A program made the position numbers and the translations under genes. From Nitrospirota bacterium (GTDB lineage Bacteria > Nitrospirota > Thermodesulfovibrionia > Thermodesulfovibrionales > Dissulfurispiraceae), in contig JADFXI010000001.1 in the NCBI GenBank assembly GCA_015233655.1, positions 34,346 through 98,345 of the forward strand: 64,000 bases of DNA, read 5' to 3'. The notes beneath the pieces are model-generated. The model saw nothing but the letters and a program-made list of their open reading frames with translations, ran no database searches and was not told where the DNA came from. Each line of letters starts with the position of its first letter. Position 1 is the first letter of the stretch. Of the stretch, positions 487 to 45,502 are shown in pieces.

Positions 487-1005
487 CTATTTGGCAGGTT
501 CTATCAACCCATAGTTCCCGTCATCACGGCGATATACGACATTGATGTCGCCGCTCCTTTCATTGGTAAAAACAAAAAAATTCTTGTCCAGAAGTTCCAT
601 CTGATTGACAGCTTCTTCGGAACTCATAGGCTTCATATCGAAGCGTTTCTGTTTTATTATGGAAACAGGCTCCTTGCCGCCCGCTCCCGGCATCTCCACG
701 CTTTTCTTTTCACCTTTGCGGTAATCGTGCTGTTTCTCCTTAAATTTGACTACCTGCTTTTCGAGCTTCTCCACCACCTGATCGATAGCGGAATATACTT
801 CGCCGGTTTTCCCTTCGGCCTGGATCATGACTCCGTTTACTTTCAGAAGCACCTCAGCCTTATGACTGAACTTCTCGACGCTCAGGGTCACAACAGCTTC
901 GGAGATATTCGACACATACTTATCGAACCTCCCGATCTTCTCCTCGGCATAACTCCTCAATGCAGGTGTTATCTCCATATGACGGCCATTGACAATAACG
1001 TTCAT
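487..1005 (-). CDS. hpf: Ribosome hibernation promoting factor, long form
   Basis: MNVIVNGRHMEITPALRSYAEEKIGRFDKY... plus C-terminal domain KPMSSEEAVNQMELLDKNFFVFTNERSGDINVVYRRDDGNYGLIEP. Confidence 0.95.
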   Translation of the reverse strand: MNVIVNGRHMEITPALRSYAEEKIGRFDKYVSNISEAVVTLSVEKFSHKAEVLLKVNGVMIQAEGKTGEVYSAIDQVVEKLEKQVVKFKEKQHDYRKGEKKSVEMPGAGGKEPVSIIKQKRFDMKPMSSEEAVNQMELLDKNFFVFTNERSGDINVVYRRDDGNYGLIEPAK

Positions 1006-1020
1006 GCTCTTTCCTCCCTT

Positions 1021-2463
1021 TTATTCATATCTTTTTCTCTGATTCTGCGGCGGGATTCTCAGTTCCTCCCGGTATTTCGCAACGGTCCTCCGCGCTATAT
1101 TTATGTTCTGTTCTTTAAGTTTGTCCACGATCATCTGATCGCTCAGGGGATGTTTCACGTCCTCCTCGGTTATCGTTTTCTTAATGAGGTCTTTAACCAA
1201 AGTCGAGGATATATCGCCTGTGTCCGACTGGATTGAGCTGCTGAAGAAAAACCTGAAACTGTACACACCGTGATCGCAGGCAAGGAATTTGTTGGATGTG
1301 ACCCTGCTGATAGTACTCTCATGCATGCCGATATCCACTGCCACATCCTTCAGGTTCAGAGGCTTCAGGCTCTGAATGCCCATGTCAAAGAAATCGCCCT
1401 GGAACTTGAGGATACTTGCGGAAACCTTATAAATAGTCTTGTTCCTCTGGTCAAGGCTCTTGATCAGCTCGCTGGCCCTCTTAAGCTTCTCCCGCAAGAA
1501 TTCCATTTCTTCCTTTGTGAACTGTTCCTTTCTCGCAATCAGCTTGCGATAACCGCTGTTAAGGACCAATTTCGGCATCCCATCTTCATTGAGTACTATC
1601 TGATAACCCTCATCCGTCTTGCTTATAAATACGTCAGGTACCACGTAATTCGTATCAGTGCTCGAAAAAATCCTGCCGGGCCGCGGCTCCAGCCCCTCGA
1701 TTATTTTAACCGCAGCCATTATCTCATCCATTGACGTATTGAAAAGCTTCACAAGGAGGCTGTATTTTTTCCGTTCCAGACAATCCATGTGATCACTCAC
1801 AATCTTTCCAACGACTGTCTGGCCCAGACCCAGATAATCAAGCTGCAGCAGCAGACATTCCTTGAGGTTCCGCGCACCTACGCCCTGCGGATCAAATGTT
1901 TGAACGAGCGCAACCGCTGCTCCAACGGTCTCGCTGTCCGTATGCAGGGCTGAAGCCAGTTCCTCATCCGGGACCCTGAGATAGCCGTCTTCATCTATAT
2001 TGCCTATGACCGCCTCAGCCGTCTTCCTGACCTCATCGTCCGAATTGCACAATCTCAGTTGCCACAACAAATGATCGTAAAGGTCAGGCTTTTTTGTATA
2101 AAACAGTTCATACGAGGGCTGCTCATCAATGCCTGGCGAGAAATAGCCGAGGTCTCTTCCATCGCTGCTCCGCTCATCAAAATAATCATCGACTCCGATG
2201 CTGGTAAGATTATCAAAAGATATCTCTGTATCAGAGTTGTCGTCGGAAACCGCGACAGGCGGTTCTTCTTCAGGATACGCTTCAGCTTCAGCTTCCGGTT
2301 CTTCGAGTGATTCTTCAAGAAAAGGATTATCTACAAGCTCCTGGTTCAGCACCTGGGCGAGTTCAAGCTGGGGCATCTGCAGCAGCTTGATCGCCTGTTG
2401 CAACTGTGGCGTGAGGATCAGCTTCTGTGAAAGTCTGAGGTCAAGCCTGTTTTCCAGAGCCAT
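1021..2463 (-). CDS. rpoN: RNA polymerase sigma-54 factor RpoN
   Basis: N-terminal LSQKLILTPQLQQAIKLLQMPQLEL and C-terminal RpoN box ARRTVAKYREELRIPPQNQRKRY. Confidence 0.97.
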   Translation of the reverse strand: MALENRLDLRLSQKLILTPQLQQAIKLLQMPQLELAQVLNQELVDNPFLEESLEEPEAEAEAYPEEEPPVAVSDDNSDTEISFDNLTSIGVDDYFDERSSDGRDLGYFSPGIDEQPSYELFYTKKPDLYDHLLWQLRLCNSDDEVRKTAEAVIGNIDEDGYLRVPDEELASALHTDSETVGAAVALVQTFDPQGVGARNLKECLLLQLDYLGLGQTVVGKIVSDHMDCLERKKYSLLVKLFNTSMDEIMAAVKIIEGLEPRPGRIFSSTDTNYVVPDVFISKTDEGYQIVLNEDGMPKLVLNSGYRKLIARKEQFTKEEMEFLREKLKRASELIKSLDQRNKTIYKVSASILKFQGDFFDMGIQSLKPLNLKDVAVDIGMHESTISRVTSNKFLACDHGVYSFRFFFSSSIQSDTGDISSTLVKDLIKKTITEEDVKHPLSDQMIVDKLKEQNINIARRTVAKYREELRIPPQNQRKRYE

Positions 2464-3206
2464 TAGAGCCTGAATTCCTCCCCGAGATACGCTTCCTTAA
2501 CAGCAGGATTATTGATAAGCTCGTCCGGCATGCCTTCAGCCAGGATCGAGCCGTTGTTTATTATATAGGCCCTATCTGTTATGGAAAGGGTCTCTCTAAC
2601 GTTATGGTCGGTTATCAATATCCCGAGTTCCTTAGACTTTAAATAGTTGAGCATCTTCTTCAGTTCTATTATCGCAATCGGGTCGATGCCGGCAAATGGT
2701 TCGTCAAACAACATAAATGTGGGTTTAAGCGCTATCGCCCTTGCAATCTCGGCGCGGCGCCTCTCTCCCCCGGACAACCGATAGCCGTCCCTGTCGGCAA
2801 ACTCTTTAAGATTGAACTCTTCGAGCAATCTTTCGACTTCTCCCTCCATATCAGACTTCGACCCTCCGTTTTCTCCTGCGCCCTTGATCTCCAGGACCGC
2901 CCTCAGATTATCTCTTACCGTCAACTTTCTGAATATAGATGGTTCCTGCGGGAGGTATCCCATTCCCTTTCTCGCTCTCTTGTACATAGGCAAACCCTGG
3001 ATGTCTTCGCCGTCAAGCATGATGCTTCCTTGCTCGGGATTTATCATACCAACAACCATATAAAAAGTTGTAGTTTTCCCCGCGCCGTTGGGACCCAGGA
3101 GTCCAACGATTTCGCCTGTATTAAGCGAAATATTGATGTCCTTTACTACATATCTCTTCCCGTAAGCCTTCGCCAGGTCCTTGATTTCAAGAATATGCCG
3201 TTTCAT
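2463..3206 (-). CDS. lptB: LPS export ABC transporter ATP-binding protein LptB
   Basis: ABC ATPase with GPNGAGKTT, LSGGERRRAEIARA; adjacent to lptA/lptC/rpoN. Confidence 0.95.
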   Translation of the reverse strand: MKRHILEIKDLAKAYGKRYVVKDINISLNTGEIVGLLGPNGAGKTTTFYMVVGMINPEQGSIMLDGEDIQGLPMYKRARKGMGYLPQEPSIFRKLTVRDNLRAVLEIKGAGENGGSKSDMEGEVERLLEEFNLKEFADRDGYRLSGGERRRAEIARAIALKPTFMLFDEPFAGIDPIAIIELKKMLNYLKSKELGILITDHNVRETLSITDRAYIINNGSILAEGMPDELINNPAVKEAYLGEEFRL

Positions 3207-3264
3207 AAGTGTTTATTCAATACTCAGCCTTAGAAAATAATATTGAAAGGGGGGCGTCTCCGCT

Positions 3265-3759
3265 TCATTTCTGTTTGTCCTTATTGACAATAAAAACCTT
3301 GCTGTTTTCAACAGTGGAGTGGTCATCTTTCATAAAATAAGTTATTTTTGTTCCGGTAACTACGTTTTCGCCCTCCGAGGCCCGAGGGTCACCGGTAAAT
3401 ACGATGTACTCTTCAGGTTCGGAATAATAAACAGCCGACTTGGAAGTTACGACCCTATCGCCCTTTACCATCTTCACATTGCCGTCCGACTCAATCTTCT
3501 TGATGTTGCTGCCGCCCTTCTCCTCGGAATAATAGACGAGCATCCTGTCCGCATACATAGTCCGTTCGCCTTTTTTCGCAACAACATTAACTTCAAAGAG
3601 AGCTGTTTTGGCCTTGTTGTCGGTCGTCAGCTTCTGAGACGTAACAATCGTCGGCTCCTTGGCAGTCTTGCTTTCCTCCGCGGCAAAAACCCCTCCCGTA
3701 CTGACGACCGCGGCAAACAACATACCCGCTATAAGGATTGCAGTCCTATTTCTTTTCAT
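3265..3759 (-). CDS. lptA: LptA/OstA-like LPS transport periplasmic protein
   Basis: Signal peptide plus OstA-like fold ...TMYADRMLVYYSEEKGGSNIKKIESDGNVKMVKGDRVVTSKSAVYYSEPEEYIVFTGDPRASEGENVVTGTKI. Confidence 0.85.
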   Translation of the reverse strand: MKRNRTAILIAGMLFAAVVSTGGVFAAEESKTAKEPTIVTSQKLTTDNKAKTALFEVNVVAKKGERTMYADRMLVYYSEEKGGSNIKKIESDGNVKMVKGDRVVTSKSAVYYSEPEEYIVFTGDPRASEGENVVTGTKITYFMKDDHSTVENSKVFIVNKDKQK

Positions 3760-4258
3760 AATAAAAAATCGCCTTCACATTCTTATTCAATGTTGCCTTA
3801 TCATTGGTAGAGTTCAAGTCATCACCCTCAACATAAAATTTCTTGCCTATTATCTGCACCTTCTGGTCAGAGAACAGTTCGTTTTTCGAGGCATCCCAAT
3901 AAAGGGTGGGAGTTAATATATCATAATCCGCGGTCGACGCATTAATATGGCCGTCGATCTTCAAATTCCGTTTATCAATATCATATAAGCCGCCGTCCGA
4001 GTTAAGTGTAAGCCCTTTTTCCGGGAAAGTTATCTGAAGGGCAACAAGTTTCACATTGTTGTCGTCGAGGAAAATGGCCTTTTTAGAGCCCAGGGTCCAT
4101 TTGACAACGCCATCTTTCCTCTGTATGATGCTGACGCCATCCATGTACGAATTGCCATCCATATTCACCTTTGGTTTATAAAACCCCTCTCTCTCTGAAA
4201 AAAATACAATCACGATGAAAAAACATATAAAAACAAGCAGAAATACGATTCTTTTCAT
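3746..4258 (-). CDS. lptC: LPS export system protein LptC
   Basis: MKRIVFLLVFICFFIVIVFF membrane anchor, YMDGVSIIQRKDGVVKWTLGSKKAIF; upstream of lptA. Start chosen at the internal Met of the track ORF. Confidence 0.8.
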   Translation of the reverse strand: MKRIVFLLVFICFFIVIVFFSEREGFYKPKVNMDGNSYMDGVSIIQRKDGVVKWTLGSKKAIFLDDNNVKLVALQITFPEKGLTLNSDGGLYDIDKRNLKIDGHINASTADYDILTPTLYWDASKNELFSDQKVQIIGKKFYVEGDDLNSTNDKATLNKNVKAIFYYEKK

Positions 4259-4579
4259 ATGAAAGTTTACCATAGCGGTACAGTATTGTAAAGGCGAGCA
4301 TGACGGAAGTTCAGCCATTTTTTGGGTTCTATGCCTGTCATTCCACGCCAATAAGTCTGCTGCTTTTGAGGGCCCAGAGCTAAAGCGGAATAGCCGGGAA
4401 TACTACTTTCGGGTAATTGTTTTCGCTGTAACAAATCCTGTTATATATACATGGCAACCGATTCAATATAAAGGAAACCAAAAACAATGGAGGCTGCATG
4501 GAAAATCTTTCACATTTAATTTGGGACTGGTTTTTACTCTGCTGTACGCCAAAACATGAACGGACAGGTACTTCCTGAA

Positions 4580-38090: not shown

Positions 38091-39476
38091 TTGATAGACG
38101 AAAATCTGCTTTATGAACTACTGAAAAAAACCCTGTCGCGAGGAGGAGAATACGCCGACATTTATGTGGAGCACAGAGAATCCACTTCGATACAGCTTGA
38201 AGACAACAGGATCGAAAAAGTAGTTACCGGTTCCTTCTCGGGCATAGGCATACGCCTTATATATAAGGAGAAGACCGCATATGCCTACAGCAATGATTTT
38301 TCCAAAAACATACTTTTGGATCTGGCCATGACAGTCAGCAATGCCGCCGCAGGCGCTGAACGCGACATAACTATCGATATGAAGCAGCAGCGTCCGCGGA
38401 TGGTTTCTCTTGTCAAAATACCGCCCTCTTCGGTTCCACTCGATAAGAAAATTGCCATGGTCCAGCTTGGGAACAAAGCCGCACGGTCTGTCGACAGCAG
38501 GATAAGGCAGGCCAAGATAGTATATGGGGAATCTCTTCAAAGGGTAAAAATCGCGTCTTCCGACGGCATGCTTGCAGAGGATGACCGCACATACACGATG
38601 GGAATGGCCCAGGTAATAGCATCGGACGGGGTATCCTTGCAGACAGGCCACGAGACAGCCGGGGGGCTTGCCGGCCACGAAATCTTCGAGACTGATCCGA
38701 TTGAAGCGATAGCTGAAACCGCGGCGCGAAGAGCACTGATGCTGCTCGGTGCCAGAAAAGCCGTGGGAGGCAGAATGCCCGTCATTATATCAGCGTCCGC
38801 GGGTGGGACCATGATTCACGAGGCGATAGGACACGGTCTTGAGGCAGACCTGGCGCGGCAGGGATTGTCGGTTTATTCCGGGAAGCTCGGTTCTCAAGTC
38901 GCCTCCAAACACATTACCGTTATCGACGATGCAACGATTCAGGGGAAAAGGGGGTCATTCTCAGTTGACGACGAGGGAGTCGCGTCGCAAAAAAACATAT
39001 TGGTCAACGAAGGAGTTCTTGTAAGCTATCTGTACGACAAATACAATGCCTTCATCGATAAATCCGCTTCCACCGGAAATGGAAGAAGAGAATCATACGA
39101 GCACAAGCCTATACCCCGTATGAGCAATACGATCATCGCTCCTGGGACTCTCTATCCGCAGGATGTTCTGAGTTCGGTCCCTAAGGGCCTGCTCGTAAAG
39201 AAAATGGGTGGGGGACAGGTTAATACAGTAACAGGAGATTTTGTATTTGAAGTTCAGGAAGGATATCTCATCGAAAACGGCAAACCGGCTGATCCGGTCC
39301 GAGGAGCTACGCTTGTCGGAAATGGACCGGCGGTATTAATGTCCATAGACATGGTCGGCTCTGACCTGGGGTTCTCCATCGGTACCTGCGGCAAAGACGG
39401 TCAGGGGGTACCGGTATCAGATGCCATGCCGACATTGAGAATCCCTGAAATGGTAGTAGGCGGAGAGGTCGCCTAG
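38091..39476 (+). CDS. tldD: Metalloprotease TldD
   Basis: MIHEAIGHGLEADLARQGLSVYSGKLGSQVASKHITVIDDATIQGKRGSFSVDDEG; HEAIGH motif; TTG start. Confidence 0.95.
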   Translation: MIDENLLYELLKKTLSRGGEYADIYVEHRESTSIQLEDNRIEKVVTGSFSGIGIRLIYKEKTAYAYSNDFSKNILLDLAMTVSNAAAGAERDITIDMKQQRPRMVSLVKIPPSSVPLDKKIAMVQLGNKAARSVDSRIRQAKIVYGESLQRVKIASSDGMLAEDDRTYTMGMAQVIASDGVSLQTGHETAGGLAGHEIFETDPIEAIAETAARRALMLLGARKAVGGRMPVIISASAGGTMIHEAIGHGLEADLARQGLSVYSGKLGSQVASKHITVIDDATIQGKRGSFSVDDEGVASQKNILVNEGVLVSYLYDKYNAFIDKSASTGNGRRESYEHKPIPRMSNTIIAPGTLYPQDVLSSVPKGLLVKKMGGGQVNTVTGDFVFEVQEGYLIENGKPADPVRGATLVGNGPAVLMSIDMVGSDLGFSIGTCGKDGQGVPVSDAMPTLRIPEMVVGGEVA

Positions 39477-39555
39477 TGTGTCAAACACAACACAACATCG
39501 ATTTTTTTCAACATTTTTATTAAGTCATAATATTGTTTTATAAGACTTTTATTCG

Positions 39556-39571
39556 TGGCACGCCATTTGCT
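39556..39571 (+). promoter_or_regulatory. Sigma-54 (-24/-12) promoter upstream of lpxC
   Basis: TGGCAC-GCCAT-TTGCT, GG-N10-GC spacing; matches the TGGCAC-N5-TTGCW consensus. Confidence 0.7.
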
Positions 39572-39587
39572 TTTATCCAATATTACT

Positions 39588-40472
39588 ATGAGATTACAGC
39601 GGACAATAAAGAAAGAAGCCTCTTTTTGCGGAATCGGTCTGCACACCGGCAGACATGCAACAGTGCGTCTAAAGCCGGCTTCCCGGGATACGGGCCTTGT
39701 ATTTTACAGGACAGACAAGAGGGCGTTGATAAGGGCCAATACTTCCTCAGTTTTGGACACTTCCTTTGCAACAACAATAGGTTACGAAGGCGCAAAGATA
39801 AAAACAGTCGAACACCTGCTGGCAGCAATTACCGGACTCGGGATTGATAACCTTCTTATCGAGGTGGATGGACCTGAGATTCCAATTCTTGACGGCAGCT
39901 CGACCGAACTCACATGCCTTATACTTGATGCCGGCATAGCAAAGCAGGGCAGAAAAATGCCCCACCTGGTAATTACGAAACCCATTATGTACAGGGACAC
40001 TCATTCGAGTATAATGGCATTTCCTTTTGACGGCACTCGCATATCGTACTCCATAAACTTCGATCACCATATTGTGGGCCGGCAGGAAATGACCATAGAC
40101 CTTAATGAAGAGAGTTTTGTCAAAGAGATAGCCCCTGCCAGGACGTTCGGCTTTCTTAGGGACGTCGAAATGCTCAAGGCAAATGGGCTTGCAAAAGGCG
40201 GGTCGCTCGACAATGCCGTAGTGGTAGGAGACGATGGGATACTGAACTCTTCAGGACTGCGGTTCTGCGATGAGTTTGTTCGCCATAAAATACTTGATAC
40301 TATTGGAGATATTTCACTTCTGGGGTTTCCGATCAGAGGGCATCTGCTTTTGGAAAAGGCGGGTCATACAGCCAATCTCAGATTCATGAAAAAGCTTCTT
40401 TCTTCGATAGATTGTTTCAACCTGATCTCCGAAGTTGACCTTTCGAGCCAACAAGTATTAAACTACAGCTAA
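39588..40472 (+). CDS. lpxC: UDP-3-O-acyl-N-acetylglucosamine deacetylase LpxC
   Basis: MRLQRTIKKEASFCGIGLHTGRHATVRLKPA...KTVEHLLAAITGLGIDNLLIEVDGPEIPILDGSS...RFCDEFVRHKILDTIGDISLLG. Confidence 0.96.
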   Translation: MRLQRTIKKEASFCGIGLHTGRHATVRLKPASRDTGLVFYRTDKRALIRANTSSVLDTSFATTIGYEGAKIKTVEHLLAAITGLGIDNLLIEVDGPEIPILDGSSTELTCLILDAGIAKQGRKMPHLVITKPIMYRDTHSSIMAFPFDGTRISYSINFDHHIVGRQEMTIDLNEESFVKEIAPARTFGFLRDVEMLKANGLAKGGSLDNAVVVGDDGILNSSGLRFCDEFVRHKILDTIGDISLLGFPIRGHLLLEKAGHTANLRFMKKLLSSIDCFNLISEVDLSSQQVLNYS

Positions 40473-40482
40473 ATAAAAAAAG

Positions 40483-40540
40483 AGGGAATACCCGATTTTC
40501 AGTTGCTCAACCATTTAAGAAAATCATCCGGGTATTCCCT
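40483..40540. terminator. Bidirectional intrinsic terminator
   Basis: AGGGAATACCCG(ATTTTC)...(GAAAAT)CATCCGGGTATTCCCT followed by AATTTTT on + and preceded by AAATAAAAAAAG (T-run on -). Confidence 0.8.
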
Positions 40541-40567
40541 AATTTTTAACTACCGTTAAAAATATTG

Positions 40568-40645
40568 TTATTTCTTCTTTGCAGTCTTCTTCGCAGTTGA
40601 CTTTGAAGCTGCCTTTTTTGCAGGAGCCTTTTTTGTAGCGGCCAT
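40568..40645 (-). CDS. 25-aa Lys/Ala-rich basic microprotein (not in supplied ORF track)
   Basis: ATGGCCGCTACAAAAAAGGCTCCTGCA... -> MAATKKAPAKKAASKSTAKKTAKKK*; strong SD AAGGGGGTG 5 nt upstream; terminator immediately downstream. Confidence 0.6.
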   Translation of the reverse strand: MAATKKAPAKKAASKSTAKKTAKKK

Positions 40646-43671: not shown

Positions 43672-45021
43672 TTACTTGAGCTTTTTTCTGAGAGTTAAAC
43701 GGTTTATTCCGAGGATGCGCGCAGCCTCTGATTGATTTTCCCTCGTATGCGACAACACATAATCAAGGATCGGCTTGTCCACCTCTCTATGTATCTTTTC
43801 GTAAATATTCTTGTCCTTTTGTTCAATAGCCTGCTTCAGCATCGGCAGTATGACCGAACCGAGTGATTCAGCAGCACCCTTCTTGTGTGAGGCCTGCCGG
43901 CTGTCACCGAGTTCTTTTATCTCCTGCGTAGTAATGTAATACGTCTTGCTCAGGGCGATTGCGGAACGTATGGTATTTTCTAGTTCCCTTATATTGCCGG
44001 GCCAATCATAGGCAAGCATTTTCTTCAGAAAAGCCCCTGTAATCCCCCTTATGGGCCGCGGCCCGGTATTACTGTATCGGTCTGCAAAAAAATTGACAAG
44101 GGGCAAAATGTCTTCCCTGCGTTCGCGCAGCGGAGGGGTATGTATCTTTGCGACGCGCAGCCGGTGCAGCAGGTCCTCTCTGAAGGAGCCCTCTCTCACC
44201 ATGGCCGCAAGGTCCCTGTTGGTAGCGGAAATCACTCGGACATTAACCTGGACTTCGCTGGTGCTTCCTATGGGATAAAAGGTCTGCGTCTGTAAAAAGC
44301 GCAGCAATTTACCCTGCAATGGCAGAGGCAATTCGGCGATCTCGTCAAAAAACACCGTGCCTTCATCCGCGATTTTCAACATTCCCGCTTTTCCGGATAG
44401 GGCGCCGGTGAAAGCACCCTTTTCAAAACCGAACAGCTCTGATTCCAGCAGGGCCTCCGGCACAGCAGCGCAGTTGACGACAACGAAGGGTTTCCCGAAG
44501 CGGGAGGAAAGCTGCGCGATGGATTCGGCAATAAGCTCCTTTCCTGTCCCCGTTTCACCTGTGATCAGCACCGGGACCTCGGCCTGGGACAACCGCGCCA
44601 ATTTTTTGCAAACTTCCATAATGCCCGCTGAGTTTCCCACAATCGCACAAGTGGGCGCCAGTGACGACTTCCTGATTGCAATAGGCTGCTTAAGCTCTTC
44701 CCGCAGATCACTAAGGTCCTGCAGCAACTGAAGCACTATTTCCCTCTGCAGCGGGCGGTGGACTATTTCGTATACGCCGAAGGTCACCGCTTCCATCACA
44801 GGCTCCGTAAGTTTCAGTTTTGTGACCGCTACAACAATATTATCCTGGCTCAAATCCTTTATAAGCCCTGCCTTCATAGTATCGATATCAAAGAAGATAA
44901 AAGAATTATGGTGACCGGTCTGACGTTTGACTATAGAACAGTCCTTTGGCAGCAGACCAGACAGCTCTTCACTCAATGAAGCGTCCCCCGTAATCAATAC
45001 AATTTCAACCGCATTATTCAT
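43672..45021 (-). CDS. NtrC-family sigma-54-dependent activator with atypical receiver-like N-terminus
   Basis: VLITGETGTGKELIAESIAQLS, FGFEKGAFTGALSGKAGML (GAFTGA), C-terminal Fis-type HTH ENQSEAARILGINRLTLRKKLK. Confidence 0.93.
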   Translation of the reverse strand: MNNAVEIVLITGDASLSEELSGLLPKDCSIVKRQTGHHNSFIFFDIDTMKAGLIKDLSQDNIVVAVTKLKLTEPVMEAVTFGVYEIVHRPLQREIVLQLLQDLSDLREELKQPIAIRKSSLAPTCAIVGNSAGIMEVCKKLARLSQAEVPVLITGETGTGKELIAESIAQLSSRFGKPFVVVNCAAVPEALLESELFGFEKGAFTGALSGKAGMLKIADEGTVFFDEIAELPLPLQGKLLRFLQTQTFYPIGSTSEVQVNVRVISATNRDLAAMVREGSFREDLLHRLRVAKIHTPPLRERREDILPLVNFFADRYSNTGPRPIRGITGAFLKKMLAYDWPGNIRELENTIRSAIALSKTYYITTQEIKELGDSRQASHKKGAAESLGSVILPMLKQAIEQKDKNIYEKIHREVDKPILDYVLSHTRENQSEAARILGINRLTLRKKLK

Positions 45022-45108: not shown

Positions 45109-45124
45109 TGGCATTGCTTTTGCT
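45109..45124 (+). promoter_or_regulatory. Sigma-54 (-24/-12) promoter
   Basis: TGGCAT-TGCTT-TTGCT, GG-N10-GC spacing, 52 nt upstream of the 45176 CDS and divergent from an NtrC-like activator. Confidence 0.7.
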
Positions 45125-45175: not shown

Positions 45176-45502
45176 ATGGAAACACAAAGTATATGCGGAC
45201 TTTGCCTCGAACGCTTGAAGTACCAGATAAAAAATGCAAAAAAGAGAGCAATGGACAGCGGAAGTAACTCAGGATGCGGAAGGATTATGCTTGAATGCTA
45301 CAACACGGCAGACCCGGATGAGATAGTAGATATACTTGAAATCTATCATGCGAAGGACCGGACACTTCAGGGAGTAAAGGAAACTCTGTCCGAACTTGCA
45401 TATTCCGCTTCAGTGCTTACGAGGGAACCTTTGCAATTCGACTTTAGTGAAGAAGGACATTTAGGCCTTTTCCTGCTGCTGGATGCAACCGTTGCGAATT
45501 AA
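45176..45502 (+). CDS. Small uncharacterised protein with N-terminal CxxC
   Basis: METQSICGLCLERLKYQIKNAKKRAMDSGSNSGCGRIMLECYN...; SD AAAGGAG upstream, sigma-54-type promoter upstream. Confidence 0.7.
   Translation: METQSICGLCLERLKYQIKNAKKRAMDSGSNSGCGRIMLECYNTADPDEIVDILEIYHAKDRTLQGVKETLSELAYSASVLTREPLQFDFSEEGHLGLFLLLDATVAN

What the first reader, a model, noticed from the sequence alone, without database searches (positions are those of the whole stretch)
39556..39571. Perfect sigma-54 promoter immediately in front of lpxC
TGGCACGCCATTTGCT matches the -24/-12 consensus with exact GG-N10-GC spacing. The expected +1 (about 12 nt after GC, near 39582) is only about 6 nt before the lpxC ATG at 39588, and there is no Shine-Dalgarno sequence. 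This predicts sigma-54-controlled, nearly leaderless lpxC, which would be unusual because LpxC is usually regulated by proteolysis. It would link envelope synthesis to an enhancer-binding protein.
Basis: partly seen in the sequence, partly recalled or inferred. Interest (0 to 1): 0.6.

Follow-up and report, generated by a model that had tools for sequence, protein, structure and literature searches.

The report
Conserved sigma-54 switch for lpxC
In this Nitrospirota bacterium and most of its relatives, the gene for the key enzyme of outer-membrane lipid A synthesis (lpxC) lies behind a conserved sigma-54 promoter with its own enhancer-like repeat and a candidate two-component regulator; the same arrangement in Geobacter and myxobacteria could explain why sigma-54 is essential there.

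Summary
TGGCACGCCATTTGCT (39556-39571, +) is a perfect -24/-12 element just before lpxC, and it is strongly conserved: 93 of 97 lpxC genes in the class carry it (2 of 97 on the reverse strand), as do 36/36 in the rest of Nitrospirota, 27/29 in the Geobacter order and 22/27 in a myxobacterial family. RpoN is encoded in the same window. In this class the predicted leader is mostly 2-9 nt without a Shine-Dalgarno; elsewhere in the phylum leaders are normal. A conserved repeat 40-80 bp upstream of the site is specific to lpxC in the four genomes tested. The likely activator is not the EBP in the window but an NtrX-like EBP elsewhere in the genome (DUF4390-NtrY-NtrX operon). Its orthologues (100/100 clade) sit directly downstream of lpxC in Geobacteraceae, Syntrophaceae, Rokubacteria and Acidobacteria. 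In one Nitrospirota family its operon slot holds a receiver-LpxC fusion and the promoter is absent. Precedent: Desulfovibrio vulgaris DVU2934 binds only lpxC. New here: the breadth, the near-leaderless form, the candidate regulator, the fusion, and a testable reason for rpoN essentiality in Geobacter and Myxococcus. No transcript data were available.

The parts
39556..39571 (+). sigma-54 -24/-12 promoter element TGGCACGCCATTTGCT
   Evidence: conserved in 93/97 class genomes
39476..39494 (+). enhancer-like repeat, first block GTGTGTCAAACACAACACA (inferred EBP site; overlaps the last base of the tldD stop codon)
   Evidence: conserved block; lpxC-specific in four relatives; binding inferred
39501..39515 (+). 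enhancer-like repeat, second block (..TTTTTTCAACA..)
   Evidence: conserved block; binding inferred
39533..39542 (+). conserved TTGTTTTATA block upstream of -24, role unknown
39582..39582 (+). predicted transcription start
   Evidence: inference: 12 nt after the C of GC
39588..40472 (+). lpxC, 294 aa, no Shine-Dalgarno
38091..39476 (+). tldD, upstream gene in the same direction
   Evidence: best NCBIfam hit TldD, below cut-off
1021..2463 (-). rpoN (sigma-54), 480 aa

Best explanation
lpxC is transcribed by RNA polymerase with sigma-54 from the -24/-12 element at 39556-39571. A NtrX-like response-regulator EBP (own genome G000:C11, locus L211 4016-5389, in an operon DUF4390 - NtrY-like kinase - EBP) binds the repeat at about -106 to -67 relative to +1. 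When phosphorylated by its membrane kinase it contacts the promoter by looping and drives ATP-dependent opening. Transcription starts a few nt before the ATG, giving a nearly leaderless mRNA. The cell would thereby set its rate of lipid A synthesis by a dedicated two-component switch at the level of transcription. Shown: the site, its conservation, RpoN, the conserved repeat and its restriction to lpxC in four genomes, the gene linkage, the EBP orthology and the receiver-LpxC fusions. Inferred: binding, activation, the sign of control, the signal sensed, and the TSS.
For: Site and conservation. RpoN encoded; the two genomes without the lpxC site that were checked lack RpoN, the nine with the site have it. 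Repeat conserved and at 0-1 mismatches only before lpxC in four genomes. Candidate EBP: gene order lpxC - NtrY-like kinase - NtrX-like EBP in Geobacteraceae, Syntrophaceae, Rokubacteria and Acidobacteria; own EBP and lpxC-linked EBPs form one 100/100 clade apart from all other EBPs of four Nitrospirota genomes; in family f14 the EBP slot of the same operon holds a receiver-LpxC fusion whose receiver best matches this EBP. Experimental precedent: D. vulgaris DVU2934, a sigma-54 response regulator, has lpxC as its single target (PMC3333781). Near-leaderless: predicted leader 2-9 nt in 81 of 93; SD-like 4-mers in 6/97 versus 27/38 in the rest of the phylum.
Against: No transcript start, ChIP or mutant data exist for this organism. 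Two genomes of family f10 carry GT instead of GC at -12. In some genomes (one genus of f16, and f11) the predicted leader is 21-180 nt, so near-leaderlessness is not required. DVU2934 itself could not be compared by sequence here. In alphaproteobacteria NtrYX lowers rather than raises lpxC transcript, and indirectly (PMC7240162). The repeat in the window is a diverged version of the family consensus. Read-through from tldD cannot be excluded.
Confidence: 0.82

Rival explanations
1. The sigma-54 promoter is real but another EBP (for example the one in the window, 43672-45021, or another of the about 25 in the genome) activates it.
For: The genome has about 25 EBPs, several conserved in relatives; the window EBP is 3 kb away.
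Against: The window EBP has no receiver hit and no reciprocal best hit in three relatives, whereas the promoter is class-wide. Only the NtrX-like group is found linked to lpxC in other phyla and replaced by a receiver-LpxC fusion.
Confidence: 0.12
2. lpxC is mainly expressed by read-through from tldD or by an unrecognised housekeeping promoter, and the sigma-54 promoter only adds to it.
For: tldD lies 111 bp upstream in the same direction with no terminator found between them; lpxC is normally essential; in alphaproteobacteria and E. coli lpxC does not need sigma-54.
Against: No sigma-70 match upstream; the sigma-54 site persists in several relatives where the sequence upstream is no longer the end of tldD (for example G007, G016, G019); near-constant spacing to the start codon.
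Confidence: 0.2
3. The motif is a chance match without function.
For: Matches with up to two mismatches occur at chance frequency in the window.
Against: 93/97 forward versus 2/97 reverse in the class, and similar in three other groups.
Confidence: 0.01

Closest known systems
Desulfovibrio vulgaris DVU2934 - lpxC (DVU2917) sigma-54 circuit (Rajeev 2011 PMC3333781; Kazakov 2015 PMC4641369)
   Same: A sigma-54 response-regulator EBP whose single DAP-chip target is lpxC; the paper notes orthologues in Geobacter lovleyi and, in S. fumaroxidans, lpxC next to the orthologous operon.
   Different: The paper found its validated motif before lpxC only in two other Desulfovibrio; here the promoter is shown to be conserved in Nitrospirota and other groups, with its own repeat and a near-leaderless form. 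Sequence orthology to DVU2934 was not tested.
Alphaproteobacterial NtrYX (Rhodobacter sphaeroides PMC7240162; Caulobacter, as cited in PMC12444477)
   Same: NtrY-like kinase and NtrX-like regulator that affect lpxC transcript and the envelope.
   Different: There NtrYX lowers lpxC transcript, with no NtrX site found at R. sphaeroides lpxC and a broad regulon; here a direct sigma-54 activator of lpxC is inferred.
Predicted sigma-54 regulons listing lpxC: Myxococcia COG0774 (PMC12316311), Leptospira (PMC12655853)
   Same: lpxC predicted among sigma-54 targets.
   Different: Single mentions in prediction lists; no regulator, enhancer or essentiality argument in the passages read.
E. coli FtsH-mediated LpxC proteolysis (PMC12444477)
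   Same: Controls the same committed step.
   Different: Post-translational rather than transcriptional.

Membership tests
sigma-54-dependent promoter | GG-N10-GC within TGGCAC-N5-TTGCW | tested here: met
sigma-54-dependent promoter | GG/GC dinucleotides conserved in relatives | tested here: met
   93/97 class, 36/36 rest of phylum
sigma-54-dependent promoter | RpoN encoded in the genome | tested here: met
sigma-54-dependent promoter | upstream activator sequence bound by an EBP | tested here: inconclusive
   Conserved, lpxC-specific repeat and a candidate EBP with GSFTGA loop; binding itself not testable here
sigma-54-dependent promoter | RpoN-dependent transcription start about 12 nt after GC | not testable with these tools
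   needs dRNA-seq or primer extension
lpxC-linked NtrX-like EBP (DVU2934-type regulator) | own EBP orthologous to EBPs encoded next to lpxC | tested here: met
   single 100/100 clade of 14; gene order
lpxC-linked NtrX-like EBP (DVU2934-type regulator) | sequence orthology to DVU2934 itself | not tested
   DVU2934 sequence was not among the loci obtained
NtrX (nitrogen assimilation equivalog NF051870) | passes the curated cut-off of 600 bits | tested here: not met
   522 bits; therefore called NtrX-like, not NtrX
leaderless mRNA | 5' end within about 5 nt of the start codon and no Shine-Dalgarno | tested here: inconclusive
   predicted leader about 6 nt, no SD; 5' end not mapped

The most novel reading that the evidence does not exclude
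LpxC in a broad set of diderms (Nitrospirota, Geobacter relatives, Syntrophaceae, Rokubacteria, some Acidobacteria and myxobacteria) is run by a dedicated NtrYX-like two-component system. The usual output is a sigma-54 promoter with an lpxC-only enhancer; in some Nitrospirota the receiver has been fused directly to LpxC, bypassing transcription. Dependence of the essential lpxC gene on sigma-54 is the reason, or one reason, why rpoN cannot be deleted in Geobacter sulfurreducens and Myxococcus xanthus.
Probability: 0.4. Interest if true: 0.85.

Novelty: new variant of a known kind. Interest (0 to 1): 0.72.

Why it matters
[quoted passage not shown] its control is known mainly as FtsH proteolysis in E. 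coli. Transcriptional control through sigma-54, conserved across Nitrospirota, Geobacter relatives and myxobacteria, is a different and apparently old solution. It makes the unexplained essentiality of rpoN in M. [quoted passage not shown] sulfurreducens directly testable. The receiver-LpxC fusion would be a case where a two-component receiver is joined to the enzyme instead of to a transcription factor.

Tried and rejected
Chance match: rejected by conservation. The EBP in the window (43672-45021) as regulator: rejected as first choice because it has no receiver hit and no reciprocal best hit in three relatives. A sigma-70 promoter formed by the TTGTTT block 17 nt before TGGCAC: rejected because the -10 would read TGGCAC/TGGTAT, and the scan found none. 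A first alignment failed on a stop codon. Papers: lpxC with 'sigma-54 promoter' gave none, and nothing on a receiver-LpxC fusion was found. Two of 38 rest-of-phylum regions (L214, L216) were set aside because clipped contigs shifted their coordinates. An earlier count gave 51-57% for the receiver identity; the full range is 47-57%. The second LpxC copies of G001 and G020 may be contamination of metagenome bins.

Full report
Observation. The window has TGGCACGCCATTTGCT at 39556-39571 on the + strand, GG and GC separated by exactly ten bases. It is the only exact TGGCACN5TTGCW match in 64 kb, with 0.06 expected from shuffles. Looser matches are at chance frequency, so a single site proves little; conservation decides. 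The gene behind it is lpxC (PF03331 341 bits, TIGR00325 301 bits), with ATG at 39588. In one relative an in-frame stop lies just upstream of the same start, there GTG, which fixes the start (L016). Placing +1 twelve nt after the C of GC gives 39582 and a 6-nt leader without a Shine-Dalgarno sequence. No sigma-70 promoter or terminator was found nearby. rpoN is in the same window (1021-2463, minus strand).

Conservation. I collected lpxC upstream regions from 97 genomes of the class. In 93 a site scoring at least 9 of 12 consensus positions is present, against 2 of 97 on the reverse strand and 3.8% of dinucleotide shuffles. Among the 93, the predicted leader is 2-9 nt in 81; a minority (mainly one genus of f16, and f11) have 21-180 nt. 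SD-like 4-mers precede the start in 6 of 97. In the rest of the phylum all 36 usable regions have a site (29 of them at 10 or more), but leaders are longer and 27 of 38 have SD-like motifs. Near-leaderlessness is therefore a class trait and the sigma-54 site a phylum trait. Two f10 genomes have GT in place of GC. Beyond the phylum, 27/29 of a Geobacter-order sample and 22/27 of a myxobacterial family sample have the site (1/29 and 1/27 on the reverse strand). Named loci with good sites include Desulfuromusa, Salidesulfovibrio, Syntrophaceae and Rokubacteria, while Polynucleobacter, gammaproteobacterial and Campylobacterales loci lack it. The two of these checked for RpoN (Polynucleobacter and the Campylobacterales bin) lack it, and all nine checked genomes with the site have it. 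The nearest named records are Nitrospirota / Thermodesulfovibrionales metagenome bins.

Enhancer. Alignment anchored on the site shows two further conserved blocks, at columns -79 to -61 (TGTG..CACA type) and about -55 to -41 (..CAACAC), plus an AT-rich TTGWTTTTAAAG block ending near column -12. In the window these are 39476-39494, 39501-39515 and 39533-39542. Searching GTGTGGYAAATATTACACA with up to three mismatches in four genomes gave 0-1 mismatches only before lpxC; the other hits all had three mismatches. The repeat thus appears dedicated to lpxC in these genomes.

Regulator. The genome has about 25 EBPs. Reciprocal comparison with three relatives leaves a few conserved groups. One of them, the NtrX-like EBP in an operon DUF4390 - NtrY-like kinase - EBP (L211, L208, L209, L210), is tied to lpxC in three ways. 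(a) In Geobacteraceae, Syntrophaceae, Rokubacteria and Acidobacteria, lpxC is followed by an NtrY-like kinase and an NtrX-like EBP. (b) Those EBPs and the Nitrospirota ones form a single 100/100 clade apart from all other EBPs sampled. (c) In two genomes of family f14 the same operon has, in the EBP's place, a fusion of a receiver to LpxC, and no sigma-54 site; that receiver is closest to this EBP group (47-57% identity, next best at most 46%). LpxC metal-ligand and catalytic motifs (EH, RHKxxD, final H; assigned from knowledge of E. coli LpxC) are kept in the fusions. Further receiver-LpxC genes occur in another Nitrospirota family, away from the kinase operon. The EBP near lpxC in the window has no receiver hit and no orthologue among the three relatives, so proximity is misleading.

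Literature. D. vulgaris DVU2934, a sigma-54 response regulator, has lpxC as its only DAP-chip target, with an EMSA-validated motif; the authors noted orthologues in Geobacter lovleyi and lpxC next to the orthologous operon in S. fumaroxidans (PMC3333781; PMC4641369). LpxC's COG is listed as enriched in predicted sigma-54 targets of Myxococcia (PMC12316311), and lpxC is predicted in Leptospira (PMC12655853). In R. sphaeroides loss of NtrYX raises lpxC transcript 8.8-fold without a binding site at lpxC (PMC7240162). A 2025 review of lipid A regulation reports alphaproteobacterial NtrYX and contains no mention of Geobacter or Desulfovibrio (PMC12444477). rpoN could not be deleted in G. sulfurreducens, and its essentiality in M. 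xanthus was unexplained; that paper proposed other reasons for Geobacter and does not mention lpxC (PMC2725144). I found no report of a receiver-LpxC fusion in the held library, which lacks most subscription papers.

Mechanism and limits. The best reading is a dedicated two-component, sigma-54-dependent switch for lpxC. The promoter, its conservation, the linkage and the EBP orthology are shown; binding, sign, signal and transcript start are inferred. The link to rpoN essentiality is a hypothesis: lpxC may be only one of several essential sigma-54 targets.

Noticed in passing
L204 5845-7134 (-), L205 5900-7180 (-): LpxC fused to an N-terminal response-regulator receiver, in the place of the NtrX-like EBP in the DUF4390-NtrY operon; no sigma-54 site.
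   Followed up: partly
L206 7649-8989 (+), L207 974-2311 (+), L250 6646-7977 (+), L251, L253-L256: Further receiver-LpxC-type genes, some as second copies beside an ordinary lpxC, not next to a kinase; those in G001 and G020 may be bin contamination.
   Followed up: partly
window 45109-45124 and 45176-45502 (+): A second -24/-12 match, TGGCATTGCTTTTGCT, before a 108-aa ORF with a Shine-Dalgarno, divergent from the EBP at 43672-45021; a likely local sigma-54 target.
   Followed up: no
window 39533-39542: Conserved TTGWTTTTAAAG-type block at a fixed distance upstream of -24 in most relatives; role unknown.
   Followed up: no
L166, L184: f10 genomes keep the lpxC site but with GT instead of GC at -12.
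   Followed up: no
L033, L034, L038, L044, L048, L052: One genus of f16 has a predicted leader of 55-180 nt between the site and lpxC, unlike the rest of the class.
   Followed up: no
window 40482-40545: Inverted repeat GGGAATACCC...GGGTATTCCC just after lpxC; the same sequence is seen downstream of lpxC in several relatives (L014, L019, L020, L026, L027), probably a terminator.
   Followed up: no
window 40568-40645 (-): Possible 25-aa lysine/alanine-rich mini-protein (MAATKKAPAKKAASKSTAKKTAKKK) convergent with lpxC; a similar stretch is seen in L216.
   Followed up: no
window 487-4351 (-): rpoN lies in a row with ORFs that read as HPF, LptB, LptA and LptC (read by eye, not tested), so sigma-54 and LPS export genes are neighbours.
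   Followed up: no
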